Assembly (NCBI GenBank): GCA_015067995.1
Contig: SVLJ01000005.1
Span: 1-64,000, forward strand
Direction of reading: 5' to 3'
DNA length: 64,000 bases
Source of the DNA: Oscillospiraceae bacterium
Lineage (GTDB): Bacteria > Bacillota > Clostridia > Oscillospirales > Oscillospiraceae
In this document: positions 24,566 to 40,530 of the stretch, one piece after another
How the letters are laid out: each line of letters begins with the position of its first letter
How positions within the stretch are numbered: the first letter of the stretch is position 1
Program-made: the position numbers and the translations under genes
The notes under the pieces: model-generated
The model's database searches: none
Seen by the model: only the letters and a program-made list of their open reading frames with translations
Told to the model about the DNA's origin: nothing

Positions 24566-26604
<2,039 letters not shown>

Positions 26605-26615
26605 TTTACACCGAT

Positions 26616-26648: not shown

Positions 26649-26674
26649 CTATTTCAAAAGCAAGGAGATTTATT

Positions 26675-26881
26675 ATGTCAGATATTGAAAAAGAATTGTT
26701 GCAGGCGAAGCACCGCTTGGAGGAAGCTCAAGCCAGAGATCGGGCGAAGGAACGCAAGACCCGGACACGGCGGCTGATCCAGGAGGGTGCTATTTTGGAG
26801 AAAGCATTACCGCAGACGACCCGTATGACATTGGAACAGTTGGAGGAATTTTTATGGGAAGCATTCAAAGCAGTACGATGA
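26675..26881 (+). CDS. DUF3847 small protein
   Basis: A 68-residue charged helical protein (MSDIEKELLQAKHRLEEAQARDRAKERKTRTRRL...) of the DUF3847 family, which regularly precedes mobA/mobL relaxase genes on clostridial elements. It could be a relaxosome accessory protein, by position only. The start has AAGGAG 7 nt upstream. The frame continues open upstream of ATG 26675 without a better start. Confidence 0.75.
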   Translation: MSDIEKELLQAKHRLEEAQARDRAKERKTRTRRLIQEGAILEKALPQTTRMTLEQLEEFLWEAFKAVR

Positions 26882-26899
26882 TGTTATGCGCTCTGGGAA

Positions 26900-27244
26900 A
26901 CCGGGGCGCTTCTTTTTTATCCCGAAGGGCGCACTTACTCACCACCCCGGTGGGGCGGTGGTATTTCCGTTGGAAATCGTGCGCTCTCCGAGGGGGATGC
27001 GGCTTCTGCGGAAGCCTGATGGACAATGCCACAGCTCTGCGGATCTACTGTCATTGTCCACGCAGTTGGTGTGCGGTAAACGCTTACAGAATACCGTCGC
27101 TTCAGCCGACGGTATTCCACCAACTGCCCGCACAAACCTGCCACCGGCAGCTTTGTCTGCGGTTATGACTATCAGCATTGCTGATAGTCATTTTCTCTTT
27201 TACAAAGAGAAACAGAAACTTTACGAAAGGATTGGTACGAACGA
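26900..27244 (+). other. Putative oriT / mobilization region
   Basis: About 360 nt without a gene, directly before the relaxase. It holds the GC-rich GGGCGCACTTACTCACCACC segment (26928-26947), a perfect 11-bp dyad (27089-27099 with 27107-27117; arms GAATACCGTCG/CGACGGTATTC), and a perfect 10-bp hairpin (27167-27176 with 27180-27189) followed by TTTTC. MobQ-type relaxases nick just upstream of their own gene next to such inverted repeats, so an origin of transfer here is likely. The nick site is not identified. Confidence 0.6.
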
Positions 27245-28936
27245 ATGGCGATCTATCATTTGGAAGCCAAGGTCATCAGCCGAGGTGCAGGCCGTTCCGC
27301 CTGCGCCGCTTCTGCCTATCTAAGCTGCTCCCAAATTTTCAATGATTATGACGGCATGCAGCACGACTACACACGGAAATCCGGTCTTGTCTGGCAGCAG
27401 GTATTCCTACCGGAATTTGCGCCGCAGGAATGGTCTGACCGGGCCGTGTTATGGAATGCGGTGGAAGCAAACGAGAAAACCAAGGACAGCAGACTGGCAA
27501 GAGAGTTCGTGGTAGCCCTGCCCATTGAACTCGGGAAAGATCAATGGAGGTTGCTGCTGACGGAATATATCCAAACCAATTTTGTGGCCCAGGGTATGTG
27601 TGCCGATGTGGCGATCCATGACACGGACGGACACAATCCCCATGCCCATATCATGCTGACGGTGCGCCCACTGGACGAACATGGCAAGTGGCAGTACAAG
27701 ACAGAGAAAGAATATCTCTGTGTCCGGGATGGAGAGGAACGTGGCTTCACCGCAGCCGAGTTCAAGGTAGTACAAGCCGACGGTTGGGAGAAACAGTATC
27801 AGTACAAGGTCGGCAAGAAAAAGGTGTACATGACTCCCTCTGCCGCCGAAGCGCAGAATCTTGTCCGAGTGTCTAAACATCCGAAAAGCACCAAGTACGG
27901 CAGACAGAACCCCATCGCAGAAAAATGGAACAGCGATGAACAGATACTTGTCTGGCGCAAGGCCTGGGCAGATGCCACCAATGCCCACTTGGAGCGGGCC
28001 GGTGCCAATGCAAGGATCGACCACCGCAGCCATGCGGAGCGAGGCCTGGATGAGCAGCCGACGATCCACGAGGGTGTCGTTGCCCGTGCGCTGGAAAAGA
28101 AGGGTATCATTTCTGACCGTTGTGAGATTAACCGACAGATCAAGGCAGACAACGCTCTGCTCCGGGAACTGAAAGCTACGGTCAAAAAGCTGATGCAGGC
28201 GGTCAAAAATACGCTGCCTGTCATGGCGGAAAAACTGGAAACCCTGCGGCAGAATATGATCATCTACCGCTACCAGCTTCTGCATATTGCTACCGGTAAA
28301 AGCAAAATGAACAAGCGCTTGAATGTACTCCGCCCCGAACTGGAACGCTATTTCAGAGTGGCAAAACAGATAAAGGAGAAAACCAAACAGCGGAATCTCC
28401 TGCTGGACGAACGCAGGGCTACTCCTGTTTGGAATCTTGCCAAGCGTCAAGATTTGGCAAAGCAGATCGCTACTCTGTCAGAAGATATTGAGGAACTGCG
28501 TTCTGAAAAAGCAATGCTGCTACACTCTCTGGATTGCACCGACGATGCAGCTATGGGCGATGTGAAGAAAGATATTGCCGCCATGGAAGCTGCGCTGAAA
28601 AAACTGGACGAGCAGGAAGTTAAATTTTCCGCTGAACTGGAATCTGCTTTACAGCAGTACCGGGAACTGGAAGCGCAGGCAGCAGAATTCGATGCAGAGA
28701 AACTGATCGATGCACGCTTGGAACTGCGGCAGGGCATGGATCGCACCACCGTTTCCAGAATCCAAACCACTTATGATACGCAATACAGTCCCTTTACCAT
28801 GGCAGAAGCCAGAAGGGATGTTTCCAAGATACTGGAGGAACATAAGGAAGAACCCCGTTCTGTCCGGGAGCGGCTTTACAAGCACCAGCAAGAGCAAACT
28901 GCACTCCGCAAGAAAGAAAAAGAACGGGATCGGTAA
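27245..28936 (+). CDS. mobA: MobA/MobL-family relaxase
   Basis: A 563-residue MobQ-type relaxase that should nick oriT and pilot the strand into a conjugation pore supplied in trans. AIYHLEAKVISRGAGRSACAASAYLS is the MobA/MobL opening with the nucleophile region. HDTDGHNPHAHIMLTVR (about residues 122-138) is the three-histidine metal motif. After residue 300 it is a long coiled coil. No type IV secretion genes are in the window, so the element is mobilizable, not self-conjugative. Confidence 0.93.
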   Translation: MAIYHLEAKVISRGAGRSACAASAYLSCSQIFNDYDGMQHDYTRKSGLVWQQVFLPEFAPQEWSDRAVLWNAVEANEKTKDSRLAREFVVALPIELGKDQWRLLLTEYIQTNFVAQGMCADVAIHDTDGHNPHAHIMLTVRPLDEHGKWQYKTEKEYLCVRDGEERGFTAAEFKVVQADGWEKQYQYKVGKKKVYMTPSAAEAQNLVRVSKHPKSTKYGRQNPIAEKWNSDEQILVWRKAWADATNAHLERAGANARIDHRSHAERGLDEQPTIHEGVVARALEKKGIISDRCEINRQIKADNALLRELKATVKKLMQAVKNTLPVMAEKLETLRQNMIIYRYQLLHIATGKSKMNKRLNVLRPELERYFRVAKQIKEKTKQRNLLLDERRATPVWNLAKRQDLAKQIATLSEDIEELRSEKAMLLHSLDCTDDAAMGDVKKDIAAMEAALKKLDEQEVKFSAELESALQQYRELEAQAAEFDAEKLIDARLELRQGMDRTTVSRIQTTYDTQYSPFTMAEARRDVSKILEEHKEEPRSVRERLYKHQQEQTALRKKEKERDR

Positions 28937-28943
28937 ATACAAC

Positions 28944-28979
28944 GGGCAGCACCAAATTAACGGTGCTGCCCAGTCTTTT
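28944..28979 (+). terminator. Terminator of the relaxase gene
   Basis: A 10-bp stem (28944-28953 with 28962-28971), then AGTCTTTTATTATTTT. It also overlaps the end of the convergent XRE gene. Confidence 0.85.
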
Positions 28980-28980
28980 A

Positions 28981-29223
28981 TTATTTTATTTCCTGTTCCA
29001 ATTCTTCAAATTCCGGTGTTGAGAAGAACTCTCCAAGCGTAATTTCAAAGCCATCGCAAAGCTTCTTCAGCGTAACTGCGCCGGGATTTTTGCTTTCGCC
29101 ATTCAAAATGCTTTTTACAGTTGCCTGCGGAACAGCAGAAATATTGCTGATAGCATTAGGAGTAATTCCCCGCTCTTTGCAAAGTTGCCGTATTCTGTTT
29201 GCAATTGCTTCTCTGGTATCCAT
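28981..29223 (-). CDS. XRE-family transcriptional repressor
   Basis: An 80-residue Cro/C1-type helix-turn-helix protein. The HTH is GITPNAISNISAVPQATVKSILNGE, followed by LKKLCDGFEITLGEFF, typical of short element repressors. ATG 29223 has GGAGGG upstream; the frame opens further to 29361 but through the promoter region. It is divergent from the serine recombinase gene, with several AGTGAT dyads between them, so autoregulation and control of the recombinase are likely. Confidence 0.88.
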   Translation of the reverse strand: MDTREAIANRIRQLCKERGITPNAISNISAVPQATVKSILNGESKNPGAVTLKKLCDGFEITLGEFFSTPEFEELEQEIK

Positions 29224-29240
29224 AGGAATCCCTCCGGACG

Positions 29241-29333
29241 ATTTATCACTATTATGATAAACTATCCGGAATTTACGCATTAGTGATACTTCACTAATTA
29301 AAGAAAATATGATATAGTAGTGATAAATCACTA
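29241..29333. promoter_or_regulatory. Triple AGTGAT operator between repressor and recombinase
   Basis: Three dyads built from the same half-site: TTTATC-N8-GATAAA around 29242-29261, TTAGTGA-TACT-TCACTAA at 29280-29297, and TAGTGAT-AA-ATCACTA at 29318-29333. Their spacing (about 37 nt between centres) and position in the divergent promoter region fit cooperative binding by the XRE repressor. Confidence 0.7.
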
Positions 29334-29353
29334 TGTTTATAGAAAGTGATGTT

Positions 29354-29365
29354 GTTAGCAAACTG
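29354..29365 (+). repeat. 12-bp direct repeat, left copy
   Basis: GTTAGCAAACTG, repeated exactly at 30090-30101. The two copies bracket the serine recombinase gene and end 49-79 nt from its neighbours' starts. An imperfectly related dyad, CAATTTATC-N8-GATAAATTG, follows at 29371-29396. This may be a recombination site or end. Confidence 0.5.
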
Positions 29366-29370: not shown

Positions 29371-29396
29371 CAATTTATCCGGATACTGATAAATTG
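29371..29396. repeat. Dyad before the serine recombinase gene
   Basis: CAATTTATC (29371-29379) and GATAAATTG (29388-29396) form a perfect 9-bp inverted repeat that runs into the GGAGG ribosome site. It could be the resolvase binding site or a hairpin limiting its translation. Confidence 0.5.
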
Positions 29397-29408
29397 GAGG
29401 TCAAAGCA

Positions 29409-29999
29409 ATGGAATATGGTTATGTGCGAGTATCAACCAAAGAACAAAACGAGCAAAGGCAAATGATTGCGCTGCAAGAGTTCGGGATTGATGTAAAAAG
29501 AATCTATATGGACAAGCAATCCGGAAAGGACTTTGAGCGAGCAAACTACAAAAAGTTGCTCAGAAAAGTAAAAAGCGGCGATACCCTTGTTGTTAAGAGT
29601 ATCGACCGTTTGGGCAGAAACTATGATGAAATCTTGGAGCAATGGCGGATCATTACCAAAGAAAAGCAGGTAGCCATTGTGGTCCTGGATATGCCGCTGC
29701 TTGACACACGGAAGAACAGGGATCTAACCGGAACGCTAATCGCAGATATTGTGTTGCAGCTTTTGTCTTATGTGGCTCAGACAGAACGGGAGTTCATTCG
29801 ACAGCGGCAGGCAGAGGGTATAGCGGCTGCAAAAGCACAAGGTGTGCAGTTTGGACGAAGACCCATGGTGCGCCCTGCTTCCTTTGTTTTTCTAAAAGAG
29901 CAATGGAAACAAAATCAAATATCCGCAAGGGCGGCAGCAAAACAGTTAGGCATTACCCATAGTACATTTTTACGGTGGGTAAATGAGGATAATGGATAA
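29409..29999 (+). CDS. Small serine recombinase (resolvase/invertase)
   Basis: A 196-residue resolvase/invertase-family recombinase. YGYVRVSTKEQNEQRQ holds the catalytic serine (Ser9), and VKSIDRLGRNYDEI holds the active-site arginine. The C-terminal HTH ISARAAAKQLGITHSTFLRWV binds DNA. The start at 29409 has GGAGG 8 nt upstream. It is paired with the divergent XRE repressor. It could resolve multimers, invert a segment or cut out a module; the direct repeats around it favour a local site. Confidence 0.9.
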   Translation: MEYGYVRVSTKEQNEQRQMIALQEFGIDVKRIYMDKQSGKDFERANYKKLLRKVKSGDTLVVKSIDRLGRNYDEILEQWRIITKEKQVAIVVLDMPLLDTRKNRDLTGTLIADIVLQLLSYVAQTEREFIRQRQAEGIAAAKAQGVQFGRRPMVRPASFVFLKEQWKQNQISARAAAKQLGITHSTFLRWVNEDNG

Positions 30000-30028: not shown

Positions 30029-30057
30029 TTGAAAAATCTTGTGGATGTTTATATAAT
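30029..30057 (+). promoter_or_regulatory. Strong promoter of the nine-gene zinc-ribbon/kinase operon
   Basis: TTGAAA (30029-30034), a 17-nt spacer and a perfect TATAAT (30052-30057), 88 nt before the first start codon. No other convincing promoter was seen before 40476, and the gene gaps are short, so it probably drives all nine genes. Confidence 0.75.
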
Positions 30058-30089
30058 AAGATGTACATAATTTCGACATATTTCGTGTG

Positions 30090-30101
30090 GTTAGCAAACT
30101 G
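30090..30101 (+). repeat. 12-bp direct repeat, right copy
   Basis: The second exact copy of GTTAGCAAACTG, in the leader of the nine-gene operon, 91 nt after the serine recombinase stop. Confidence 0.5.
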
Positions 30102-30144
30102 TACTTTGAAAGCCATAGAATATGCAGGAAAGGATTGATTTATT

Positions 30145-30453
30145 TTGGATTCTGCTGGATGGATCATTTTCCTTGTTTTGGGACTATTTATATTTATCAT
30201 ATATGTTGCACAGAAAGACAGTAGCTCCGGCAGCGGGTCAGCCTCGCCTACGCCTCCTGCACCAGTACCGAAGCCGCCCGAGCCGACTCCAAAACCGCCC
30301 GAACCAACACCACCTAAAAAAGAAGAACAGAAGTATGTTTCGATTTATGAGTACACATCTGTGCAGAGTGTCAAAAAATGTGCCCATTGCGATGGAGAAA
30401 ATAAATATGGTGCAAAAGTTTGTTGCATTTGTGGCAATGATATCGACAGTTGA
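30145..30453 (+). CDS. Small membrane zinc-ribbon protein (operon gene 1)
   Basis: A 102-residue protein. Residues 5-22 are one transmembrane helix, 28-62 a proline-rich linker with PEPTPKPP repeats, and 78-97 a zinc ribbon (CAHC...CCIC). A TTG start at 30145 is inferred: it is the only start-like codon after an in-frame stop and lies about 12 nt from AGGAAAGG. The same parts (TM, Pro-rich linker, zinc ribbon) recur in gene 9. The ribbon should face the cytoplasm if the N terminus is outside. No close family is recognised. Confidence 0.7.
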   Translation: MDSAGWIIFLVLGLFIFIIYVAQKDSSSGSGSASPTPPAPVPKPPEPTPKPPEPTPPKKEEQKYVSIYEYTSVQSVKKCAHCDGENKYGAKVCCICGNDIDS

Positions 30454-30467
30454 TTGGAGGAAATCAT

Positions 30468-31433
30468 ATGTTTTGCAAATGGTGTGGTAACAGCATTCAG
30501 TTAACAGATAAGAAATGTCCAGCCTGTGGACGAGAGACACCCCCAATGTCTGATTGCGGTGGATTATATAACCTGAAACATTCAAACGATGGTCCTACAG
30601 CACCCACGAAAGAGAAAGTGATTGTGAAGGAAGTTCCCCACTGTGCTGCCGTAGAAAAAATGGAAGCCAAATATGCGAAAGAACGCAAGGCTGCTAAAAA
30701 GCATCATGCAATTACAATGTTTTGCTTGATTACGGTATTGCTTGTAACTGTATGTTCTGTGCTTTTGGTTTTGAGAGTAAATAACCGGATGAGTGTGCTT
30801 AAAGAGCAAATTGATAATATCCAAATTGAGATACCTACTTATCCAACTGAAGCTCCCTTAGATAAGCCGAATGATGAGCAAGAGACAGATCCTCCCGAAG
30901 AATCAACGCAGTATAGTTTTACAATCAATACGACAGTGGTCAATGGTGGCCCTAATGAAATCAGCAACACCTATGATTTTGGCAATTACGCCAAGTCAGT
31001 CAAGGTAACTACAACAACAGCAGCGAGCGAGAATGGCCAGACATTTACAATTTCGTACCTTCTTAATGAAGAAGCATCGGTCGATCTGAATTTGAAATAT
31101 GTCCAGGAAGATACTGAGTTACTTACTATAGGTGTGAAGTGTGATACTGATCTGTCTTTCTTTTATGATCAGGATTTCTCTTATGAGTGGCAGTATCGTA
31201 GCAGCATAGGAAATTGGACTTCAGCAGATGCTGATATCATTACGGTTGATGATGAAAACTATCGTCATATAACATGTACCACAGATTGGCTAAGGAATAT
31301 CACTATTATGAAGCAACCCATTGAACTGCGGTGTGTCATCCGGGTCAAAAATGCATCCGGGGATGATATGCAGATTATGGTTGATGGAATATCGGTTGCA
31401 GCAGACGGAACGATTATTAACAACAACCAGTAA
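30468..31433 (+). CDS. Zinc ribbon - TM - extracellular domain protein (operon gene 2)
   Basis: A 321-residue protein. MFCKWCGNSIQLTDKKCPACG (1-21) is a zinc ribbon. A Lys-rich stretch follows (about 60-85), then a transmembrane helix (FCLITVLLVTVCSVLLVL), a short coiled segment and a Thr/Pro/Glu-rich stalk. The outer part (about 150-321) is beta-rich with repeated polar strands and no cysteine motif. The topology implies a sensor with the ribbon inside and the beta domain outside. The start has GGAGG 8 nt upstream. No known family is recognised beyond the ribbon. Confidence 0.75.
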   Translation: MFCKWCGNSIQLTDKKCPACGRETPPMSDCGGLYNLKHSNDGPTAPTKEKVIVKEVPHCAAVEKMEAKYAKERKAAKKHHAITMFCLITVLLVTVCSVLLVLRVNNRMSVLKEQIDNIQIEIPTYPTEAPLDKPNDEQETDPPEESTQYSFTINTTVVNGGPNEISNTYDFGNYAKSVKVTTTTAASENGQTFTISYLLNEEASVDLNLKYVQEDTELLTIGVKCDTDLSFFYDQDFSYEWQYRSSIGNWTSADADIITVDDENYRHITCTTDWLRNITIMKQPIELRCVIRVKNASGDDMQIMVDGISVAADGTIINNNQ

Positions 31434-31466
31434 ATATCACTTACAAATATATAGGAGGTTTTACTT

Positions 31467-32213
31467 ATGACCAGTAATTATCAGGGTTCTTATCAGGGAA
31501 GCTACGGCGGAAATCAGCAGAATGGACAGCAGAGAGGCTCCACTAATTATACCGTAGATATGGTGCTTTGTATTGATGCAACCGGAAGTATGGAGAACCG
31601 AACCGGTGGCCAGCAGAGAATCATCAATATGGTAAAGCAGAATGCCCTGAATTTCTATGATGACATGATTAAAAAGATGGCTGAAAAGCATAAGCCTATG
31701 GCACAGCTACGCGTCCGTGTGATTATTTTTAGAGATTTTATTGCAGACGGTGCCGATGCAATGAAGGGAACGGGCTTTTATCTGCTTCCCCAGCAGGCAA
31801 AGGAGTTTGAAGATTGCATCAATGGTATCCATGCTGATGGCGGCGGCGATATTCCCGAAGATGGTCTGGAAGCTCTTGCATATGCTATGAAATCCCCGTG
31901 GACAACCCATGGTGCCAAAAAGCGTCAGGTCATCGTTGTCTGGACGGATGCCGGCACCCATGAATTGGGTTATGGAAAAAGATCTCCTCACTATCCCAAA
32001 GGCATGCCCGCAAATTTGGCTGAACTTGAAGATTGGTGGGATGAAATGGATGATTATGCCAAGCGTCTAATCATCTATGCACCCAACACCAACTACTGGA
32101 ACTACATCAGCGAAAACTGGGAAAAAGTTGTTCATGTTCATTCTTCTGCAGGTGATGGTATGTCAGAACAGAAGTATAGCGAAATTCTTGATGTGATTGC
32201 AAACACAATCTAA
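31467..32213 (+). CDS. VWA-domain protein, TerY-like (operon gene 3)
   Basis: A 248-residue soluble von Willebrand A protein. Residues 4-25 are Gly/Gln/Tyr-rich (QGSYQGSYGGNQQNG). The VWA domain starts with VLCIDATGSM, where Asp37, Thr39 and Ser41 form the MIDAS start; later acidic positions are in DGGGDIPEDGLEAL and VVWTDAGTHEL. It has no signal peptide or TM. VWA next to PP2C and a Ser/Thr kinase is the TerY-P triad known from tellurite-resistance/stress and phage-defence loci; there the VWA protein is thought to act as a metal-dependent scaffold. The sequence is distant from TerY proper. Confidence 0.85.
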   Translation: MTSNYQGSYQGSYGGNQQNGQQRGSTNYTVDMVLCIDATGSMENRTGGQQRIINMVKQNALNFYDDMIKKMAEKHKPMAQLRVRVIIFRDFIADGADAMKGTGFYLLPQQAKEFEDCINGIHADGGGDIPEDGLEALAYAMKSPWTTHGAKKRQVIVVWTDAGTHELGYGKRSPHYPKGMPANLAELEDWWDEMDDYAKRLIIYAPNTNYWNYISENWEKVVHVHSSAGDGMSEQKYSEILDVIANTI

Positions 32214-32256
32214 GCAGTTTAGATGCTTTAGGATGAATGTTATAGGAGGCACCAAA

Positions 32257-33225
32257 ATGAAGAAAACACTGCCCTTGGATTTCCATACAATTGTCTTTTG
32301 TGGCGAAGCAAGAAAGGCCTTGGGAGAGGATAATTGGGCATATGGTTTTTGTGAAGATTCAGGAATCATAGCTGTTTTTGATGGTTGTGGTGGTTCCGGT
32401 GCACGAAAGCACGAAGACTATAACAATCATTCAGAAGCATTTATGGCAGCACGCATCTGCTCTGGCGCACTGTATGAATGTATCCAGCAACACTTTCCAG
32501 TAAATATATCTCCCGATGTTTTTGTCAAGCAGATTGTCGAACCCTGTATTAAGGATGCATTAAAGGCCAATATTCCAGCGGAGAAGAATAATAGTATTAA
32601 AATTACGGGCATGCGAACGCTCCCGTCTACGATGGCTGCAGCTCTAATCCAGAAGGGAAGCGGAAATAATCTGCTGGTTAGTCCAATATGGGCCGGTGAC
32701 TCAAGAGTGTATATTTTAGACTCGACTGGCCTTTCTCAGTTGACTGTGGATCATTCCAACCAACCTGATCCGATGGAAGGTTTGTATGATGATGGAACGC
32801 TTACCAATGTAATTTGTGCTGATAAGCCTGTCCATTTGAATTGCAGTACCTTTACTGTCAAAGCACCGTTTATGGTAATTGCAGCAACAGACGGGTGCTT
32901 CGGATATGTTTCTTCTCCTATGGAGTTTGAAGGAATGATTCTACATACAATGTTAGAATCCTCAAGTGTTGCACAATGGGAGGACAACCTGCAAAAGTTG
33001 ATAGCTTCTTATGCGGGTGACGATCATACATTATGTCTGGCATCCTTTGGCTATGGCAGCTTTGCGTCCATTCAGCAGGCATTCCAGACCAGATACGACT
33101 ATCTCCGTAAAAACTATCTGGAAACAGTGTGGGCAACACCATGGGAAGATCGTGATACAAGACGCAATCTATGGGCAAGTTACCGACAAAACTATTTGAA
33201 GTATATAGAGGGTGAAAAACGATAA
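32257..33225 (+). CDS. PP2C-family Ser/Thr phosphatase (operon gene 4)
   Basis: A 322-residue PPM/PP2C phosphatase. EDNWAYG (24-30), GIIAVFDGCGGSGAR (36-50; Asp42 and Gly43 bind metal), WAGDSRVYIL, AATDGCFGY and the C-terminal DDHTL are the family's ordered metal and catalytic motifs. It has no TM. AGGAGG lies 7 nt upstream of ATG 32257. Its TAA overlaps the kinase ATG (TAATG), so phosphatase and kinase are translationally coupled, as in PrpC-PrkC and TerY-P pairs. It should reverse the kinase's phosphorylation. Confidence 0.92.
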   Translation: MKKTLPLDFHTIVFCGEARKALGEDNWAYGFCEDSGIIAVFDGCGGSGARKHEDYNNHSEAFMAARICSGALYECIQQHFPVNISPDVFVKQIVEPCIKDALKANIPAEKNNSIKITGMRTLPSTMAAALIQKGSGNNLLVSPIWAGDSRVYILDSTGLSQLTVDHSNQPDPMEGLYDDGTLTNVICADKPVHLNCSTFTVKAPFMVIAATDGCFGYVSSPMEFEGMILHTMLESSSVAQWEDNLQKLIASYAGDDHTLCLASFGYGSFASIQQAFQTRYDYLRKNYLETVWATPWEDRDTRRNLWASYRQNYLKYIEGEKR

Positions 33226-34640
33226 TGGCAATGTTGGGTCGGTATGAAAGAACTACCGCATTATCAAATAAAGATGCCGGAAGTTGCAGATGGTGTTTTG
33301 CTATCCGTGGAGGTCAGGAGTATTTTATAAAGGAATTTCTGGAACCAAAGTATCCTGAGAATGATACCACATCAAGTCCTGAAAAAAGAGCTAAGAAAAT
33401 CAAAAAATGCGAAGCTTTTGAGCAAAGCAAAACAAGAATATACCGTGCGATTAATGAGCATTCTGATGGGAATGCAGTTCGAGTCGTTGATTTCTTCCGT
33501 GTGGGCGCAAAGTATTACATGGTTATGCCCAAGATAAATCCTGTCAAAATGAGCGTTGAGGAAATCGCAAGGCTTCCAGAGCATGTCAAACGAAGAATTT
33601 GTACAGTAATAGCACATTCTGTAGCGCAGCTTCATAAAAGTAAATTTGTTCACGCCGATATTAAGCACACTAACATAATGCTTGTGCATTCTCGAACAAG
33701 TAAGTTGACGGCAAAGTTGATTGACTACGATGCTGGTTTCTTTGAGTATGATCCACCGACGCACCCGGAAGAAATTCCTGGTGATCAGGTTTACTTTTCA
33801 CCAGAAGCTTGGACTGCGATTCTTGGAGAAGAAGCTCAGCTTACTTGCAAACTTGATATTTTTGCATTGGGAATCTTGTTCCACCAGTATTTAACAGGAA
33901 AACTCCCTGGGTACGATGAAGAAAAGTTTAGCTGTGCAGGCGAAGCTGTGGCTGCTGGAGAAAAGTTGAATATTTCTTGGGATATGCCAGCCGATATACA
34001 TAGAGTCATTTCTCAAATGCTTGCAGCGAATCCATGTGAACGTCCTTCTGCACAGGAAGTGTTTAATAATCTAACGAAACAAGATAAGCTTTCCTACACT
34101 GTTCACCATGAAGTAGAGGGCAAAACAAGAGATTCGTTCACATTTGAGCTGAGTGAGGAAAACTATGGAAATCGAAAGATTGCAATCAAACAAGAATCCC
34201 TAAAGCCCAGGGAATATACTGGCTATAAATATGACAGACGGGAACCTTGGATAATAGAAGGAGAAACCGTAGATGATGGAACAGTTATCACTGTCAAGTA
34301 TGTTAAAGATCTGAATCAGCAGAAAACCGTCAGCTACACAGTTCAGCACAAGGTGGGCGGTAAAATTGTGGAGCAGACGGTTCATACTACGAAAGTATGG
34401 ATCAATGCAACAAATGAAATTCCCATAGTAAAAGGTTCGCTTGAGCCCAAGTCCTATGCTGGATGCACGTTTGAAGCGATTAGTACAGACAAACAGGATG
34501 GCGATCGTGTTCCTAATGGTACAATTATTACACTAAAATATACTGAGGCAATCATTGAAAACGATGTAATTCAGAACGAAGGAGAGTTTATAGGCGATGC
34601 ACCTGCACGGCCTGGTTTCTGGGATCTGGGCGATCTATAA
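33225..34640 (+). CDS. Ser/Thr protein kinase with C-terminal MucBP-like repeats (operon gene 5)
   Basis: A 471-residue protein. The kinase domain (about 5-285) has the ATP lysine in YFIKEF (Lys36), the catalytic loop HADIKHTN (143-150; Asp145, Lys147, Asn150) and DYD (167-169) in place of DFG. DIFALGILFHQ and NPCERPSAQEV are the usual C-lobe motifs. Two repeats of about 72 residues follow (289-361 and 369-440), both starting SYTV-x-H and ending TVITVKY or TIITLKY, with LKPREYTGY or LEPKSYAGC in the middle; these resemble MucBP domains. The tail ends FWDLGDL (465-471). No transmembrane helix separates the parts, so the repeats are cytoplasmic, which is unusual. Confidence 0.92.
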   Translation: MAMLGRYERTTALSNKDAGSCRWCFAIRGGQEYFIKEFLEPKYPENDTTSSPEKRAKKIKKCEAFEQSKTRIYRAINEHSDGNAVRVVDFFRVGAKYYMVMPKINPVKMSVEEIARLPEHVKRRICTVIAHSVAQLHKSKFVHADIKHTNIMLVHSRTSKLTAKLIDYDAGFFEYDPPTHPEEIPGDQVYFSPEAWTAILGEEAQLTCKLDIFALGILFHQYLTGKLPGYDEEKFSCAGEAVAAGEKLNISWDMPADIHRVISQMLAANPCERPSAQEVFNNLTKQDKLSYTVHHEVEGKTRDSFTFELSEENYGNRKIAIKQESLKPREYTGYKYDRREPWIIEGETVDDGTVITVKYVKDLNQQKTVSYTVQHKVGGKIVEQTVHTTKVWINATNEIPIVKGSLEPKSYAGCTFEAISTDKQDGDRVPNGTIITLKYTEAIIENDVIQNEGEFIGDAPARPGFWDLGDL

Positions 34641-34668
34641 ACAAAAAGACAGCATAGAGGTGATGTAG

Positions 34669-35727
34669 ATGTACTGCAAAAAATGTGGTAATAGTATCGG
34701 CACCAATGAAAAATGTCCGTTTTGTGGTACAGAGCAGCATAACTTTGATCCGTTTACTACATTGGGAGATATCGAACCCAATAAGAGTTACGGAGGAACG
34801 AAGACCTATGTAAATAATCCGGCTATTCCAACTACGAAACCTGATTGCTTTTCTGCATTAGGTGATCTTGAACAGAGCCGCAGTTGCTTTGGCGGGGTGC
34901 ATTATGCAAACACAGATTCTGTAATTAATTCAATCGATCCGTTTCAACTTATGGGTAATTTGGACGGTTCACCTATTCTGTTGGATGGTTCTGGAATGGA
35001 TGCGCCCGCCACGGGTAGTTTTAAGCCTATGGATCCGCTAAATGGCGGTGAAGATTCCGATACTGAAGGGGTGGTTAGTCATGGAGATAAGCCTGCCACC
35101 GGCGGCTTTAAACCTATGGACGAGTTAGCTCCCTCGAATGATGGTCAGGAAGAAACTGAAGAAACAGAGAATCGAAATCCCACTGTAACCTTTATTTGGA
35201 AAAAGTGGATGACAATTGCAGTATGTTGTACAACCATAATCTGTTTGCTCTTATGTGTGGTTTGTTCACCGGCTTTGCGTTTTGCGAACGGCGAATTTTC
35301 CGCCGAATCCGCAGCAAATGTTTTAGATGAAGTTTTGGATGTGCCTATTCTTGAGGTGAATACCGAAGAAATTGAAACACCGGCATTTCTCTACTCAATA
35401 GAATCTCGTAACGGATATGAGATTCTGTCTTTTAAGAAAACACAAACTGGTGCAGTTGCGACGATGCGAGTATTTGCTCCTGATGTATACGGTGTTGCAA
35501 AGAATTTGGATTCCAGCAATACATACATCGATGCAAATACATTGATGGATGCGCTTGACAGTGCATTGAAAACTGCTCCGATAGTGGAAAAGCAAGTGGT
35601 CGTTGAATATATCCTGACAGATGAGGGCTATGCGCCTATTCTAACAGCAGAATTTCTGGATGCATACTATGGTGGAATATATCAACTTAGAGATGAAGTA
35701 ATTGCAAAAGCAGCAGTGGAGGGATGA
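34669..35727 (+). CDS. Zinc ribbon - motif-repeat - TM protein (operon gene 6)
   Basis: A 352-residue protein. The zinc ribbon is at 1-20 (CKKC...CPFC). The cytoplasmic region 21-170 holds five copies of F-x-x-[LM]-[GD]-x-[LI]: FTTLGDI (29), FSALGDL (61), FQLMGNL (92), FKPMDPL (118) and FKPMDEL (147). An acidic stretch and WKKWMT (178-182) lead into one TM helix (181-200). An external domain of about 150 residues with no known motif follows. The same repeat occurs at the end of the kinase and in gene 8, so this may be the kinase's substrate or docking partner. The start is ATG 34669 with AGGTGATG upstream. Confidence 0.75.
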   Translation: MYCKKCGNSIGTNEKCPFCGTEQHNFDPFTTLGDIEPNKSYGGTKTYVNNPAIPTTKPDCFSALGDLEQSRSCFGGVHYANTDSVINSIDPFQLMGNLDGSPILLDGSGMDAPATGSFKPMDPLNGGEDSDTEGVVSHGDKPATGGFKPMDELAPSNDGQEETEETENRNPTVTFIWKKWMTIAVCCTTIICLLLCVVCSPALRFANGEFSAESAANVLDEVLDVPILEVNTEEIETPAFLYSIESRNGYEILSFKKTQTGAVATMRVFAPDVYGVAKNLDSSNTYIDANTLMDALDSALKTAPIVEKQVVVEYILTDEGYAPILTAEFLDAYYGGIYQLRDEVIAKAAVEG

Positions 35728-35729
35728 TT

Positions 35730-38207
35730 ATGGCTAAACGAATTTTATCAACAGTCCTCCTTATTGCGTATATCCTATCATTCTCGATTGTGCCTGTTCG
35801 TGCAACAGAAGCAGACTACCAGACTGCGGAAATCATTGTAGATAGCTTCGGAAATCAGCATACCGAAAAAGTACTGATAAATGAAGATCATACACTTTTT
35901 GCCCCGATAAGCTGGTTCACAAGATATGGCTTAATGGCACGCATGGAAGAATCCAACCGACATGTGTTTTATTATGCGGGTGAGGAAGCTGTTAAGCCAT
36001 TCACCAAGCGGATCTATATTGACATGAATGGTCGAGAAGTGAGTTGTGGCTGTTATGTTACGGAAACAAAATTCCAAACATATATAACACATAAATTCAC
36101 TCAGTCTATCATTAGTGAAAACACATTATACCTGCCGGTGGCAGAAATGCTGCCGCTGTTCAATGCAAAAATTGAAATCACAGATGACGGCATTTTACAT
36201 ATTAATGCAAATGCCGTATCGGTATTCAGCGCATTATATGGATTGAATCTACAGGATTTAACTTTTGATGCAGATCGTGATGTTGTGGGACATGAATTTA
36301 TGACTGCATCAGGTATGCTCATTGATACAATTCTAGGTTTGCGCATTGATCGTCTGGATGGTTTATTTAATACAGGCGAATATAACGACTATAGAGAACT
36401 ATTCAAAGCGTATTTGGTAGACGATGCAGTATTTCTTTCTGCCTATGATGAAGATCAAACGCCGACAGAGCAGTTCATGGAAACCAAAAGAAATAACCTG
36501 AAGGAAATAGACGGACTTCTGAGTGATGCCAAAATCGGGCCCGACTTTTTGGGGTATATATTGGATTCTGAATTGTATCCAGGATTCCATGATTTTAAGG
36601 ATTTCTACTCCGGAATGAGCGATACTGCAGAGGGAATATTCAAAATTGCTGACTATAGCAATACTTACATGAATCAAGTGGATGATCACTTGAATATGTT
36701 GGAAGCTGTATACAGTACCGAATTCTTTGGAGAGACAAATCCTGCCTACAAGGCTGCAGTACAGATTGCTTCTACCTATGGATCAGATAGTGCCAAACAG
36801 CGAAAGGAAATTGTTCACTCAGCACTGTATGATTTCATCGTTAGTGAGTTTGGTGGGACAGCCGTAAAAGAATTTGGTCTAACGCCATATAAGATTGCAT
36901 TCAAGGCTGTGAAGCTGGCCCTTCCGGAAGCTGTGGAAGAAGTAGGGAAAGCAGCACAGTTGGGATACATGGATGATGTGGTGAACCATGCTTGCAGAGT
37001 GTTCGATAAGCGTACACAGGACATGCAGTTTGATGCAGAGTCTTTGGATGAATTAAGGCTGTCAGCTATGTTGGCAATGGTAGCCTCCCGACATGCATAC
37101 AACACATTTTGGGAAGATCACGAGATAATCGAGAAGATAAGTGACGTTCTCATGGGCCTTTATCTGGCAGCGGAAAGTGTAGATTGTGAATCTGTAGATT
37201 ACTATTCTGCCATGCTTTCTGAATTGAACAGAAGGGTATCAATGTTGGATGTGAAGGTTACTGGTACCATTGATGCACCTGATACGAAAGATATTTTCGA
37301 TGAAACCTATTGGCATATGAGTTTCGGCCAGTCCCTTGGATATAATTATGTTGCTAGATTCAGTGCCGATGGAACCTTTGTTGCACGAGGGATGGGCTCC
37401 GGTGCATACGAAAATGGCACCTATACATATTCCAATGGAAAACTGGTGATAGTCTTTGATATTGATGGATTCGGCTATCCGTCAACTATCGAATACAGTG
37501 GAAATAAAGATGGCTTCGCTTCACTTGATAAATACCGAATGCAGGTAGGTGAAGATTACTATACTATCAGTCCGGACAACGGTGGAAGTCAGTTCTTCAA
37601 TGAGCCTATTGAAACAGATCCACCGATACAGACAGAAGATCATTCCTATATTGGTACATGGCTATTTGATTATTGGCTTCCCGTTGGTGAAGGAAAAATT
37701 GTTATAACGAATGATTCCATTTCTGTATATACCCCGGAAGGAGACAGTGGTGGGCCGTACTTATACAATGTTTCGAATGATGGTATTTATACAAATCTAA
37801 CATTTATAACCGAATCCGGAGAACATGGTGTTATTGTATACATCAATCACGATATGATCGGACTATATATCGAGGAATACATAGACGATGATTCTGGCGC
37901 AAAACCTTCTTTTGGCATGACCGGAGATGGCGATGTTTTGTATCGTCAGGGAGCAGGAAAAACAGATATTGATCTTCCTGATTCTTACTATGGGATGTTT
38001 GCTGAAGGCGATGTCTATGAGTATCTGTATTTCCCAGCGGCAAAGGTTCTCTATGTCTGGAATGCGGGCATTGGTTTCTTTCCCATGTATGTAAACAATG
38101 ATGGTTCTTTAGAGTATATGGAAGCTATATCATTGCTGAATGCTGAGAAGCTACCAGACAATGCAATCTATACTGAGAGCAATTTCGTTATCACAGATAA
38201 TAAATAA
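35730..38207 (+). CDS. Large secreted protein with copper-amine-oxidase-N-like domain (operon gene 7)
   Basis: An 825-residue secreted protein. A signal peptide (residues 1-24, ending PVRA-TE) is clear. The region about 40-180 has two strand patterns, TLFAPISWFTRYGLMARM and TLYLPVAEMLPLFNAKIE, like the Cu-amine-oxidase N-terminal (stalk) repeats common in Firmicutes secreted proteins. The middle is helical. The last 300 residues are beta-rich with lipocalin-like strands (YIGTWLFDYWLPVGEGKIVI and similar). ATG 35730 has GGAGG 7 nt upstream and is preferred over ATG 35724, which overlaps the previous stop. No sorting signal is seen. It may be the external sensing or effector part of the system. 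Confidence 0.7.
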   Translation: MAKRILSTVLLIAYILSFSIVPVRATEADYQTAEIIVDSFGNQHTEKVLINEDHTLFAPISWFTRYGLMARMEESNRHVFYYAGEEAVKPFTKRIYIDMNGREVSCGCYVTETKFQTYITHKFTQSIISENTLYLPVAEMLPLFNAKIEITDDGILHINANAVSVFSALYGLNLQDLTFDADRDVVGHEFMTASGMLIDTILGLRIDRLDGLFNTGEYNDYRELFKAYLVDDAVFLSAYDEDQTPTEQFMETKRNNLKEIDGLLSDAKIGPDFLGYILDSELYPGFHDFKDFYSGMSDTAEGIFKIADYSNTYMNQVDDHLNMLEAVYSTEFFGETNPAYKAAVQIASTYGSDSAKQRKEIVHSALYDFIVSEFGGTAVKEFGLTPYKIAFKAVKLALPEAVEEVGKAAQLGYMDDVVNHACRVFDKRTQDMQFDAESLDELRLSAMLAMVASRHAYNTFWEDHEIIEKISDVLMGLYLAAESVDCESVDYYSAMLSELNRRVSMLDVKVTGTIDAPDTKDIFDETYWHMSFGQSLGYNYVARFSADGTFVARGMGSGAYENGTYTYSNGKLVIVFDIDGFGYPSTIEYSGNKDGFASLDKYRMQVGEDYYTISPDNGGSQFFNEPIETDPPIQTEDHSYIGTWLFDYWLPVGEGKIVITNDSISVYTPEGDSGGPYLYNVSNDGIYTNLTFITESGEHGVIVYINHDMIGLYIEEYIDDDSGAKPSFGMTGDGDVLYRQGAGKTDIDLPDSYYGMFAEGDVYEYLYFPAAKVLYVWNAGIGFFPMYVNNDGSLEYMEAISLLNAEKLPDNAIYTESNFVITDNK

Positions 38208-38222
38208 TGGGGGGGACAACTG

Positions 38223-39488
38223 ATGCAGTGTCCAAAATGTAAAGCGACAGTTCCTGGTGATAGTAAGTTCTGCCAGATTTGTGGCAGTGATGTGAGAACT
38301 GTGATACCTATTGACCATGGAACACCCAGATATGATCCGTTTTCAACTTTAGGAGATTTGGATCAAGACACGACTACCAATATTCAGGATGATAATGTAA
38401 TTGGTTATTCACACAACGGCGGTAGAAAACGTGTATATTATGTTGGCGAAGACGGACTGTGGCGCGATAAAGAAGTGGATGAAACGGCGCGAGATATCCC
38501 GGCAGCAGATCCTAAACGGCATACACTTTTCTGTACTGGTTGCGGAAAACCCACTCCCGCAGACTCCGTTTTCTGCGAGCATTGCGGAAAACAGCTTCTC
38601 ACTATTCCAGCACAGAAGAAATTCCAATGGAAGAAGTGGATGACCGCTGTAGCCTGTGGCGCAGTGCTACTATTGGTGATGTTGGTTATACCATGGAGTA
38701 ATAATGGAAATGCAGCTTCTGGGATACCCAATCAAAACAATACACAGTCCTCGAACGGCGCCAATAATGTCGTTGATGAATTTACACCCCCGTCCGGATA
38801 TGATGAGGGTTATTCTATCACAAAAGAGTATATAGCTTCTTCAACTGAAGGCATATACAAAATGAAGGAGTATAACGGGAACACTTGGTTCTGTAGAGTA
38901 TCCGTTCCTTCATGGTTCACACCTGTGAGTGAAGAAGTAGATACAGGAGACATATGGAATCCGTATTATCTTTACATTGTCAACACAGAGAATTACGAGG
39001 ATTTTACATTCCAGTCTGTGGCAAAAGGAGAGGATCAGCTTGCTCTCGTTGGAATCACGTCTGTATCTTGTGCTCCGATAATCGAAATGGATTATACAAT
39101 TCCATATTATTTAGGTGCATATAGTGGTTCCATCCATTACAAGAGATCTATCGGATATCTTGTTGGTGGATACAATGAGGACTTTGAGGAGATTAACGGT
39201 CAAGAACCCAGTGCATATCTAAATCGCTTGTCTGACTACTACAATGTGTTTCGTGCGAATAAAGGAGAATCTTTTACATTCTCCTACTTCTCAGGTACAG
39301 ATTATCTAGAGGAAACTGTAACCGCAGATCACTTTTACTACATCATCGAAGACCACAATTCCTATATTTCCTTGCCTGTTACAAAAACAACAGAAGGATA
39401 TTTTATCGTTGATTACTCTGAACTGTCTCCGGGATATTATTGGTTCAGTGTAGGTGGGGACGATACTATTATCGAAATTAAAGGATAA
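38223..39488 (+). CDS. Double zinc ribbon - TM - extracellular protein (operon gene 8)
   Basis: A 421-residue protein. The first zinc ribbon is at 3-20 (CPKC...CQIC) and the second at 104-121 (CTGC...CEHC). Between them DPFSTLGDL carries the shared motif (40-46). FQWKKWMTAVACGAVLL (134-150) leads into the TM helix and is closely similar to the same region of gene 6 (FIWKKWMTIAVCC), showing a common origin of the anchors. The outer 250 residues are beta-rich with a Ser/Asn-rich stalk. The ribosome site GGGGGG is 8 nt upstream. No family beyond the ribbon is recognised. Confidence 0.75.
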   Translation: MQCPKCKATVPGDSKFCQICGSDVRTVIPIDHGTPRYDPFSTLGDLDQDTTTNIQDDNVIGYSHNGGRKRVYYVGEDGLWRDKEVDETARDIPAADPKRHTLFCTGCGKPTPADSVFCEHCGKQLLTIPAQKKFQWKKWMTAVACGAVLLLVMLVIPWSNNGNAASGIPNQNNTQSSNGANNVVDEFTPPSGYDEGYSITKEYIASSTEGIYKMKEYNGNTWFCRVSVPSWFTPVSEEVDTGDIWNPYYLYIVNTENYEDFTFQSVAKGEDQLALVGITSVSCAPIIEMDYTIPYYLGAYSGSIHYKRSIGYLVGGYNEDFEEINGQEPSAYLNRLSDYYNVFRANKGESFTFSYFSGTDYLEETVTADHFYYIIEDHNSYISLPVTKTTEGYFIVDYSELSPGYYWFSVGGDDTIIEIKG

Positions 39489-39519
39489 GTGCTATGCAAG
39501 AATGAAAGGAGAGCATATT

Positions 39520-40476
39520 ATGCCTGACACCAAAAAGCAATCGTCGCTCATGTCGGTTTTGACTATTTGTGCTATATTTATTGCACTTCTCAGCTTCCTT
39601 TTGCCCTATGTTTCCATAAACTTCTTTGGGACTCATACAATGTCCGGTATAGACTTTATCATTGAAGCTATTGATGACGAAGAAATGCCTGCGTTGTTAG
39701 CTGTAATCTGCCCAGTGCTCAGCGTAACCGGGTTGATTTTTGCATTTGCATCCATGAAATCCAGTAAGGCATCGGTTGGCACCATTATTTCGTCCGGAAT
39801 CGGTATGCTTGTTATGATCGTAGCAATGTCCGATGGAGATTGGGATATCATCGTTGCATTAGATTATGCAGCAATAGGCTTTTATTTGTACGAAGCAATG
39901 AGTTTCGCTGCGGTTGTTCTGCCTGCAGTATCGATGTATATGTCCAAAAATACAGTTTCAGGCGAAGTTAATGGAACACCAACTCCTGCGCCCAAACCTA
40001 CACCAAAACCTGTCCCTCCGATACCCGGGCCAATTCCTCCAAAAAAGGCCATCTGTCCTAAGTGTAAAGCGGAACAAGAGAAGGATGCTGCCTTTTGCCG
40101 ATTCTGCGGTACTCCAATCAACAATAGCAAACCTATTCCTCCCAAACCTACTCCGGCACCCGAACCGGAGCCGAATCCTGTTCCAACACCTACACCTACG
40201 CCTATAGCCAAAGCAAAAGATGGTAAGGTGATGTGCCCGCATTGTGGCGCAAGACACGTGGCAGGAACAACAAGCTGCAAGTACTGCGGAACCACAATGT
40301 CAGGAGCAAGTGGTCCTAAAACCGATCCTGTGGTTATAGAAGAGCCTATTCCTGTGCCGGTATATAAACCTACCTCCACAGGCAAGCCCGGAAGAAAGGC
40401 TGTCTGTCCTCACTGTGGTGCACGTCAAAGTGAGGATGCCATAAACTGCAAGTATTGCGGAACTGCAATGAAATAA
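39520..40476 (+). CDS. Four-TM protein with three zinc ribbons (operon gene 9)
   Basis: A 318-residue protein. Residues 8-150 contain four hydrophobic helices. Then come Pro-rich linkers (PTPAPKPTPKPVPP and PTPAPEPEPNPVPTP) and three zinc ribbons: CPKC...CRFC (about 187-204), CPHC...CKYC (about 246-263) and CPHC...CKYC (about 298-315). AAAGGAG lies 8 nt upstream of ATG 39520; the frame opens upstream to 39454 inside gene 8. The ribbons are the same type as in genes 1, 2, 6 and 8. It closes the operon and is followed by a strong terminator. Confidence 0.75.
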   Translation: MPDTKKQSSLMSVLTICAIFIALLSFLLPYVSINFFGTHTMSGIDFIIEAIDDEEMPALLAVICPVLSVTGLIFAFASMKSSKASVGTIISSGIGMLVMIVAMSDGDWDIIVALDYAAIGFYLYEAMSFAAVVLPAVSMYMSKNTVSGEVNGTPTPAPKPTPKPVPPIPGPIPPKKAICPKCKAEQEKDAAFCRFCGTPINNSKPIPPKPTPAPEPEPNPVPTPTPTPIAKAKDGKVMCPHCGARHVAGTTSCKYCGTTMSGASGPKTDPVVIEEPIPVPVYKPTSTGKPGRKAVCPHCGARQSEDAINCKYCGTAMK

Positions 40477-40490
40477 ACAATATATAATCT

Positions 40491-40530
40491 AAGTGCCACC
40501 CGCTTTTGGGTGGCACTTGCTATAAAAAAG
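40491..40530 (+). terminator. Terminator of the nine-gene operon
   Basis: An 11-bp perfect stem (40491-40501 with 40508-40518), then GCTATAAAAAAG, a poor T-run on the plus strand. The 100 nt beyond it, up to the next gene, hold no recognisable gene or tRNA fragment; the right end of the island is probably here. Confidence 0.7.

What the first reader, a model, noticed from the sequence alone, without database searches (positions are those of the whole stretch)
30029..40476. A nine-gene mobile operon built around a VWA-PP2C-Ser/Thr kinase triad and zinc-ribbon membrane proteins
One strong promoter precedes nine tightly spaced, AT-rich genes. Genes 3, 4 and 5 are VWA, PP2C phosphatase and Ser/Thr kinase, with phosphatase and kinase overlapping (TAATG). 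This is the order of the TerY-P triad known from tellurite/stress loci and phage-defence studies. The six other genes (1, 2, 6, 7, 8, 9) are five zinc-ribbon proteins with membrane segments and one 825-aa secreted protein. I know of no described TerY-P locus with this accessory set. It sits behind an XRE repressor and recombinase in a mobilizable island next to tRNA-Ser, where defence systems often gather. A two-sided design is plausible: outer domains sense, the kinase/phosphatase/VWA core signals, and the ribbons bind partners or nucleic acid. Defence versus envelope-stress function is inference.
Basis: partly seen in the sequence, partly recalled or inferred. Interest (0 to 1): 0.92.

Follow-up and report, generated by a model that had tools for sequence, protein, structure and literature searches.

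The report
Kinase-phosphatase-VWA membrane operon with shared tail
A mobile-looking gene cluster of gut Clostridia combines a protein kinase, a phosphatase and an integrin-like VWA protein with a changing set of zinc-ribbon and membrane proteins, and many of these otherwise unrelated proteins carry the same short peptide tail, which looks like an address tag that gathers them into one signalling complex.

Summary
The operon is real: nine tightly spaced genes at 30145-40476 encode a VWA-PP2C-Ser/Thr kinase triad, five zinc-ribbon membrane proteins and one secreted protein. The accessory set recurs. In 85 loci (window included), zinc-ribbon+TM genes are 142 of 454 same-strand genes within 6 kb of the VWA gene, against 13 of 439 genes further out. 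It is not a TerY-P triad proper: the VWA has no BLASTP similarity to the one canonical TerY available, and the kinase lacks a C-terminal zinc ribbon. Bearers include soluble zinc-ribbon adaptors, multi-TM proteins, a TIR-like kinase and a TetR-like protein. In the window it ends the kinase and recurs inside g6 (three copies) and g8 (one). One group of 16 loci lacks the motif and mostly the accessory set, keeping a bare triad. Best reading: a membrane phospho-signalling complex assembled by a peptide docking code. Its receptor (VWA MIDAS or zinc ribbon) and its biological output are inferred, not shown. Defence is possible but not supported.

The parts
30029..30057 (+). sigma-70-type promoter TTGAAA-17-TATAAT
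   Evidence: 11 of 12 matches
30145..30453 (+). g1: small TM + Pro-rich linker + C-terminal zinc ribbon (102 aa, TTG start)
   Evidence: relatives directly upstream of g2-like genes in other loci
30468..31433 (+). g2: N-terminal zinc ribbon, long helix with TM, C-terminal beta-rich domain predicted outside (321 aa)
   Evidence: low-confidence model (mean pLDDT 57.8) with ribbon hairpins, helix 61-119 and about ten strands after it
31467..32213 (+). g3: VWA protein with MIDAS-type DxTGS motif (248 aa)
   Evidence: Pfam VWA_4 over and VWA_2 just under cut-off; D-x-[ST]-x-S kept in 85 of 85 aligned rows
32257..33225 (+). g4: PP2C-type phosphatase (322 aa)
   Evidence: PP2C_2 just under cut-off; Stp1/IreP model E 3.6e-8 but far under its cut-off; catalytic motifs aligned in 6 loci
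33225..34640 (+). g5: Ser/Thr kinase with long C-terminal extension ending in the docking motif (471 aa)
   Evidence: Pkinase 84.5 bits; D145, K147, N150 and D167 invariant in 7 aligned kinases
34617..34637 (+). C-terminal docking motif FWDLGDL-COOH of g5
34669..35727 (+). g6: zinc ribbon + motif-rich segment + TM + C-terminal domain (352 aa)
34753..34773 (+). internal motif copy FTTLGDI in g6
   Evidence: three copies in g6; 0 of 5000 shuffles reach three
34849..34869 (+). internal motif copy FSALGDL in g6
34942..34962 (+). internal motif copy FQLMGNL in g6
35020..35127 (+). two looser motif variants FKPMDPL (35020-35040) and FKPMDEL (35107-35127) in g6
   Evidence: read by eye from the sequence printed; the second resembles the kinase tail WYDMDEL of L016; not tested statistically
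35730..38207 (+). g7: 825-aa protein with signal-peptide-like N-terminus, no known domain
   Evidence: not part of the conserved set
38223..39488 (+). g8: two zinc ribbons + TM + C-terminal domain (421 aa)
   Evidence: DZR over cut-off
38340..38360 (+). internal motif copy FSTLGDL in g8, before the TM
   Evidence: 169 of 5000 shuffles also reach one copy
39520..40476 (+). g9: four TM segments then three zinc ribbons (318 aa)
40490..40519 (+). 12-bp hairpin after the last gene, possible transcript end (no T run)
   Evidence: fold -22.3 kcal/mol for 40471-40530; not listed by the terminator scan
29394..29999 (+). g0: serine resolvase/invertase upstream of the operon; relatives also upstream in L039, L080 and L091

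Best explanation
This is a membrane-associated Ser/Thr phospho-signalling system. Its fixed core is VWA + PP2C + kinase. Its exchangeable periphery is mostly zinc-ribbon proteins, many with TM segments and varied further domains. Shown by comparison: the kinase and many unrelated peripheral proteins share a tag, aromatic-x-x-x-[AP]-G-D-L, at the C-terminus or in copies before the TM, in positions that predicted topology puts in the cytosol. Inferred: the tag binds one common receptor, so peripheral proteins are brought to the kinase/phosphatase core. A membrane or outer domain detects a signal, kinase and PP2C set the phosphorylation state of tag-bearing proteins, and outputs (membrane enzymes, occasionally a TIR-like or TetR-like protein) are switched. 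The receptor is most likely the VWA domain, whose metal site classically binds an acidic residue such as the Asp of GDL; the zinc ribbons are the second candidate. In the window, g6 (three to five copies) would be a multivalent scaffold and g8 a second client.
For: Co-occurrence: zinc-ribbon+TM genes 142/454 near same-strand against 13/439 far on both strands, 85 loci, caller without ribbon bonus. Tag: kinase tails in 54 of 82 loci under a loose pattern; under the strict one 34 of 84 kinases end in it, shuffle mean 1.6 hits. A matrix learned from kinases alone, applied to non-core proteins, gives 33/546 near and 2/438 far at score 8 (Fisher 3.6e-7), one of the two far hits lying in the extended L044 operon; 37 near and 6 far at score 6, the 37 in 14 clusters with the tail removed; VWA and PP2C 3/163. 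Paired variants inside loci, e.g. L061 FFKSADDLL/FFDRPDDLD, L038 FFFQAGEDDL/FFHADNDDLD. Topology by hydropathy: tagged membrane proteins have an even TM count in 16 of 20, untagged near ones in 65 of 313. Tag and accessory set are missing together in one group nested in the tagged tree. Later loci: 2 of 5 new loci, the two with the strongest VWA matches, have tagged kinases, and one has two tagged ribbon+TM proteins. More distant relatives: kinases of L014 and L136 carry repeats of a ~60-aa C-terminal domain that also ends a zinc-ribbon protein of L136 (E 3e-13 and 1e-20), the same principle with another module. Receptor hint: MIDAS motif in 85 of 85 rows; best PDB profile match is integrin beta-8 (E 1.2e-3); acidic ligands of MIDAS sites are described in PMC6509490 (passages). 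FHA domains in 5 of 66 chosen accessory proteins fit phosphothreonine signalling.
Against: No binding, phosphorylation or phenotype data. The VWA motif stays intact in the tagless group, so it must have another use there, and the ribbons, not the VWA, go missing with the tag, which favours the ribbons as receptor. The integrin match is weak. Tails of L025 and L026 keep FF.xP but lack the acidic residue; the kinases of L008, L009, L013, L014, L062 and L089 lack the tag, and the frames called for L042 and L073 do too. Three of five new loci are untagged; the L137 kinase shows neither module. A broad pattern also occurs in 11 of 533 far proteins, against 40 of 562 near. The strict pattern gives 11 hits in far proteins against 8.0 in shuffles. 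The one finished structure model is of g2 and poor; the ribbon+tail model was never accepted.
Confidence: 0.55

Rival explanations
1. A TerY-P-type anti-phage defence system: the triad senses infection and the accessory proteins are effectors.
For: Same three enzyme classes; TerY-P-like modules are reported as defence (PMC11090510, passages). Patchy carriage near relaxase and recombinases. One locus has a TIR-like/kinase fusion with a tag variant. Subtilases in 5 of 66 chosen accessory proteins.
Against: VWA not TerY-like. TerY_C 0/149 in the phylum sample, but the search's own control genomes were silent. No PADLOC match at E 1 for g1-g4, g6, g7; E above 0.2 for g8, g9; generic kinases for g5. 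In 95 flanking proteins PADLOC gives mad3 and mad8 (6 members each), and SspA, DndA, DolB, BrxL, MzaA, PDC-M21C and AriA (1 each), with no coherent system apparent; Pfam shows transporters and metabolic enzymes.
Confidence: 0.2
2. An envelope or surface-interaction regulator: membrane-anchored domains (LRR, lectin, transglutaminase, subtilase, Ig-like) act on or sense the wall, neighbours or gut polymers, under kinase/phosphatase control. This is about the output and can hold together with the docking code.
For: Pfam domains in 66 chosen accessory proteins: S8 in 5, LRR_5 in 4, transglutaminase in 3, C-type lectin in 2, PASTA, ricin-type and Big_2 in 1 each. Many record titles name gut, rumen or faecal sources. 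No defence context.
Against: The side of the membrane was not checked for each domain. High turnover of the periphery and rarity in the genus (2/86) are unusual for housekeeping; the stand-alone group lacks the membrane parts.
Confidence: 0.4
3. The shared tail is a degron or a sorting signal read by a host protease or translocase, not a docking site for the triad.
For: Short, C-terminal, hydrophobic-ended; present on proteins without body similarity.
Against: Internal copies in g6, g8 and L016_46; rare outside these operons on the same contigs (2/438 at score 8); absent where the accessory set is absent.
Confidence: 0.15
4. The tail similarity is shared ancestry of a few proteins or chance.
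For: 16 of 37 tagged proteins fall in one cluster joined by ribbon homology, and a few of the 37 (e.g. L070_22, L073_7) look like chance.
Against: 14 clusters with no body similarity at E 1e-4; shuffles of the kinases give a mean of 1.6 hits against 36 found.
Confidence: 0.05

Closest known systems
TerY-P triad (Anantharaman et al. 2012, known here only as cited; CoCoNuT paper PMC11090510, passages seen)
   Same: VWA + PP2C + Ser/Thr kinase in one operon; zinc ribbon linked to the kinase; mobile-looking contexts
   Different: VWA of another subfamily (VWA_4-like); ribbon is on separate membrane or adaptor proteins; kinase ends in a short motif; no nuclease/helicase partner found
GAP1-N2 neighbourhoods with kinase, PP2C and stand-alone vWA in actinobacteria (PMC7159879, passages seen)
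   Same: kinase often fused to a ribbon or TM helices, next to PP2C and vWA
   Different: no GTPase or GAP1 partner identified here; mostly Clostridia; no shared tail mentioned in the passages read
ArnA-ArnB module of Sulfolobus (PMC6509490, passages seen)
   Same: vWA protein works with a zinc-finger/FHA protein under Ser/Thr kinase control; a works-like analogue
   Different: archaeal, represses archaellum genes; no membrane ribbon set or shared tail in the passages read
PrkC/PrpC (PknB-PASTA kinase and Stp1 phosphatase) of Bacillota
   Same: kinase and PP2C similarity
   Different: kinase here has no TM of its own and no PASTA match, and scores far below those family cut-offs
TcaA-like ribbon-TM membrane proteins (architecture recalled)
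   Same: N-terminal ribbon, one TM, outer domain (weak NCBIfam echo in g8/g9, E 0.1)
   Different: far below cut-off; here tied to a kinase operon

Membership tests
TerY-P triad | TerY-family VWA protein | tested here: not met
   No BLASTP similarity to the TerY+TerY_C protein L099; hhalign with the family profile prob 69, i.e. at most a common VWA fold. One canonical TerY was available.
TerY-P triad | PP2C phosphatase in the operon | tested here: met
   g4: PP2C_2 23.1 bits against cut-off 24 (just under), Stp1/IreP E 3.6e-8; catalytic motifs conserved in relatives
TerY-P triad | Ser/Thr kinase with C-terminal zinc ribbon (or OB fold) | tested here: not met
   g5 has a kinase domain but no ribbon or OB match; in the 80 survey loci only L025 and L026 kinases show the CxxC-CxxC pattern
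TerY-P triad | TerY_C metal-binding domain in the TerY protein | tested here: inconclusive
   none in g3; 0/149 phylum genomes, but no control genome rang; the same model finds 1 of 274 genomes in the class of L093's genome
TerY-P triad | association with restriction, helicase or nuclease modules | tested here: not met
   none among 7 upstream island proteins and 3 downstream genes given to Pfam, two of which had no family at all, nor in the operon and g0
PADLOC-listed defence systems | match to a system's specific proteins | tested here: not met
   generic kinase models (mad6, PD-T4-6, MkoA and others; 25 of 33 shown) for g5; none for g1-g4, g6, g7; E above 0.2 for g8, g9
PrkC/PknB-PASTA kinases | TM segment and PASTA repeats in the kinase; family cut-off | tested here: not met
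   61 bits against cut-off 450; no TM in g5; no PASTA match
This tagged VWA-PP2C-kinase/zinc-ribbon system | triad + ribbon-TM proteins + kinase tail motif | tested here: met
This tagged VWA-PP2C-kinase/zinc-ribbon system | tail binds a core component | not testable with these tools

The most novel reading that the evidence does not exclude
A bacterial integrin-like signalosome: the VWA protein is a cytosolic MIDAS receptor that reads a GD(L) peptide code carried by the kinase, by soluble zinc-ribbon adaptors and by membrane sensors and effectors, so that new outer domains and outputs are plugged into one phospho-switch simply by gaining a short tail.
Probability: 0.3. Interest if true: 0.87.

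Novelty: new variant of a known kind. Interest (0 to 1): 0.72.

Why it matters
If the tail is a docking code, it explains how one kinase/phosphatase core can be rewired to many unrelated membrane proteins, a modularity that I know of nowhere else in bacterial Ser/Thr signalling (own knowledge, not a search result). It also gives a simple rule (read the C-terminus) for finding further members and clients in unannotated Clostridia genomes, and a directly testable VWA-ligand hypothesis.

Tried and rejected
Gene 1 as 30122-30490 (the longest frame): rejected for the 30145 frame, which encodes TM + ribbon like its relatives. TerY-P membership: rejected on tested features. Viral contig scan with the VWA: 3 pattern matches, no relative. 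Search for a tRNA-Ser attachment repeat: two 12-bp matches only. Empty-site comparison: the right flank is not conserved in the 24 other genomes of the genus searched. Defence-island test with flanking genes: no coherent system (95 of the 109 listed references were given; mad3 and mad8, 6 members each, may be generic ATPases, since 6 members match ABC_tran; that is inference). A control scan of 53 flanking genes of the untagged group was listed but not run. A second linker motif (LKSTM-like) in tagged proteins: 15/34 tagged, 25/512 near untagged, 17/438 far; the pattern was chosen after seeing the sequences, so it is kept as a lead only. Paralogue explanation for the tail: rejected by body clustering. 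My first ribbon count used a gene caller that favoured ribbon+TM frames and included two duplicate loci; one search replaces it, but the per-locus statements (36 of 87; 13 of 16) still rest on that caller. Rows dropped before counts: L027 and L010 (duplicate or near-duplicate of L011 and L051) and L084 (no VWA frame called); both counts leave out proteins under 80 aa, and one search also those cut by contig ends. One search leaves out opposite-strand genes within 6 kb (2 ribbon+TM among 190). Alignments A4 and A7 put unrelated proteins together only as carriers for family scans; A4 held 66 of the 143 listed references, chosen by hand to stay under the size limit. PMC2176072 was opened and held none of the three terms searched.
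Full report
OBSERVATION. The nine genes are there and form one directional block with short spacers, GC 0.41-0.47 per gene, between chromosomal stretches of mostly 0.50-0.64. A promoter-like site at 30029-30057 matches 11 of 12 positions, though promoter-like sites in the region are no commoner than in shuffles (26 against 30.4). A 12-bp hairpin without a T run follows the last gene. Gene 1 is better read as 30145-30453. Family scans confirm VWA, PP2C-like (just under cut-off) and kinase proteins and ribbons in g2, g8 and g9; g1 and g6 have ribbons by pattern; g7 has no known domain. PADLOC gives only generic kinase matches.

IS THE SET RECURRENT? The VWA is found in 5 of 295 genomes of the order, 14 of 391 of the class and 2 of 86 of the genus, this genome included each time, so it is patchy. 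A scan of one genome for each of 84,980 species gave 319 relatives, of which the best 80 were kept. With 4 loci from the order search, two plasmids, one phage-labelled contig and the window, 88 loci were mapped. A common layout is [small ribbon-TM][ribbon-TM][VWA][PP2C][kinase] followed by varied ribbon-TM proteins; another is ribbon, ribbon, PP2C, kinase, VWA. Both genes just upstream of the triad hold a ribbon in 36 of 87 loci (two duplicates included, ribbon-favouring caller). With a caller that does not favour ribbons, ribbon+TM genes are 142 of 454 same-strand genes within 6 kb and 13 of 439 genes beyond, both strands (85 loci, Fisher 1.3e-32); 60 of the 85 loci have at least one. Matches at E 0.01 in the other loci: g1 21, g2 35, g6 7, g8 19, g9 36, partly through the ribbon itself; g7 has none and occurs in 3 of 295 order genomes including this one. 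So ribbons belong to the system and the secreted protein does not appear to.

THE TAIL. Kinase domains are followed by linkers of very different length, yet many end alike: FFRPGDL, WFSSAGDL, WFKPAGDL, FFTAAGDL, here GFWDLGDL. The strict pattern gives 36 hits in 84 kinases, 34 of them C-terminal, against a shuffle mean of 1.6; in 764 non-kinase proteins near the triad 33 hits against 10.9, 18 of them C-terminal; in 593 far proteins 11 hits against 8.0, one of them C-terminal and that one in an extended operon. To avoid circularity a matrix was learned from 77 kinase tails and applied to other proteins: 33 of 546 near against 2 of 438 far at score 8; at score 6, 37 near proteins in 31 loci and 14 clusters with no body similarity, against 6 far; VWA/PP2C 3 of 163. 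A few of the 37 look like chance. Bearers include soluble ribbon-linker-tail proteins (L049_16, L029_30), proteins with two to ten predicted TM segments, a TIR-like/kinase fusion (L040_39; TIR_2 27.8 bits against cut-off 28) and a TetR-like protein (L044_5). L044 alone has five tagged accessory genes near the triad plus one further out. Where the kinase tail is a variant, a partner's often is too. Tagged membrane proteins have even TM counts in 16 of 20, untagged near ones in 65 of 313 (hydropathy only). In the window, g6 has three internal copies before its TM (0 of 5000 shuffles), g8 one (169 of 5000 shuffles reach one), the kinase one, at its very end (75 of 5000 reach one anywhere).

LOSS AND REPLACEMENT. 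In a VWA tree of 82 loci (quick method), 16 loci whose kinase tail is of the NGLSRFMKK kind form one group (support 92) nested among tagged loci; they have bare triads, and 13 of 16 have no ribbon-TM gene nearby. The simplest reading is one joint loss of tag and accessory set; an unscanned root leaves room for other histories. In more distant relatives (L014, L136) the kinases carry two to three copies of another ~60-aa C-terminal domain, and a ribbon protein of L136 ends in the same domain (E 3e-13 and 1e-20); L137 does not show it. Of five new loci from another draw of genomes, L127 and L133, those with the strongest VWA matches, have tagged kinases, and L133 also has two tagged ribbon+TM proteins (scores 6.4 and 9.5); L136, L137 and L138 are untagged.

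WHAT IT DOES. Shown: co-occurrence, shared tail, topology pattern, joint absence. Inferred: docking, and phosphorylation of clients. Receptor: the VWA keeps D-x-[ST]-x-S in 85 of 85 rows, its only solved matches at E 0.01 are integrin beta-8 chains (best 1.2e-3; PF00362 just over cut-off for L011), and MIDAS sites bind acidic residues (PMC6509490, passages). Against: the motif is intact in the tagless group, while the ribbons are gone there. My own weighting is VWA about 55:35 over ribbons. Output: 66 chosen accessory proteins include subtilase (5), FHA (5), LRR_5 (4), transglutaminase (3) and C-type lectin (2); which side of the membrane each lies on was not checked one by one. A model of g2 (mean pLDDT 57.8, so of little weight) shows ribbon hairpins, a long helix at 61-119 and a strand-rich C-terminal part. 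This points to surface interaction or inter-cell conflict under kinase control rather than to a nucleic-acid-targeting defence. Flanks show no coherent defence system: PADLOC at E 1e-10 on 95 proteins gives mad3 and mad8 in 6 each and SspA, DndA, DolB, BrxL, MzaA, PDC-M21C and AriA in 1 each, amid transporters and metabolic enzymes.

COMPARISON. Papers seen as passages: PMC11090510, PMC4978471, PMC7159879, PMC6509490. PMC11090510 describes TerY-P as TerY-like VWA, PP2C and kinase fused to a ribbon. Two of these features fail here, so it is a TerY-P-like triad, not a TerY-P triad. I saw no description of a shared tail or of a ribbon-membrane set in the listings of eight full-text searches; most subscription papers are not in that library.

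VERDICT. Observation confirmed; interpretation partly supported; a new variant of a known kind whose main novelty, the docking tail, was not in the original finding.

Noticed in passing
window 20531-29361: Decayed mobile region: integrase remnant beside tRNA-Ser, Cys_rich_VLP protein, large serine recombinase with DUF4368, MobA/MobL relaxase, XRE-type gene.
   Followed up: partly
window 29394-29999; L039, L080, L091: The same resolvase/invertase family (54-68% identity) lies about 2.1-3.4 kb upstream of the VWA gene in three other loci, so it may travel with the operon.
   Followed up: partly
L133, L136, L138: Two (L133, L136) or three (L138) VWA genes in tandem, perhaps subunits of a mixed VWA assembly.
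   Followed up: no
L040:8496-9905: TIR-like domain fused to a kinase domain and ending in the tail variant FSRASDLD.
   Followed up: no
tagged proteins, e.g. L044, L094, L031, L032: A second linker motif, LKSTM-like or KLKIxM-like, some 20-40 residues before the tail; possible phospho-site or edge strand.
   Followed up: partly
L010 (MT836186.1): A 12-kb record labelled Bacteriophage sp. from human faeces carries PP2C-kinase-VWA; its kinase tail is the same as in the Faecalibacterium prausnitzii locus L051, so the record may be largely bacterial DNA.
   Followed up: partly
window g5, residues ~290-440: Two tandem YTVxHxVxGK repeats (MucBP-like by recall, no family match) between kinase domain and tail; the L016 kinase is of similar length (468 aa).
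   Followed up: no
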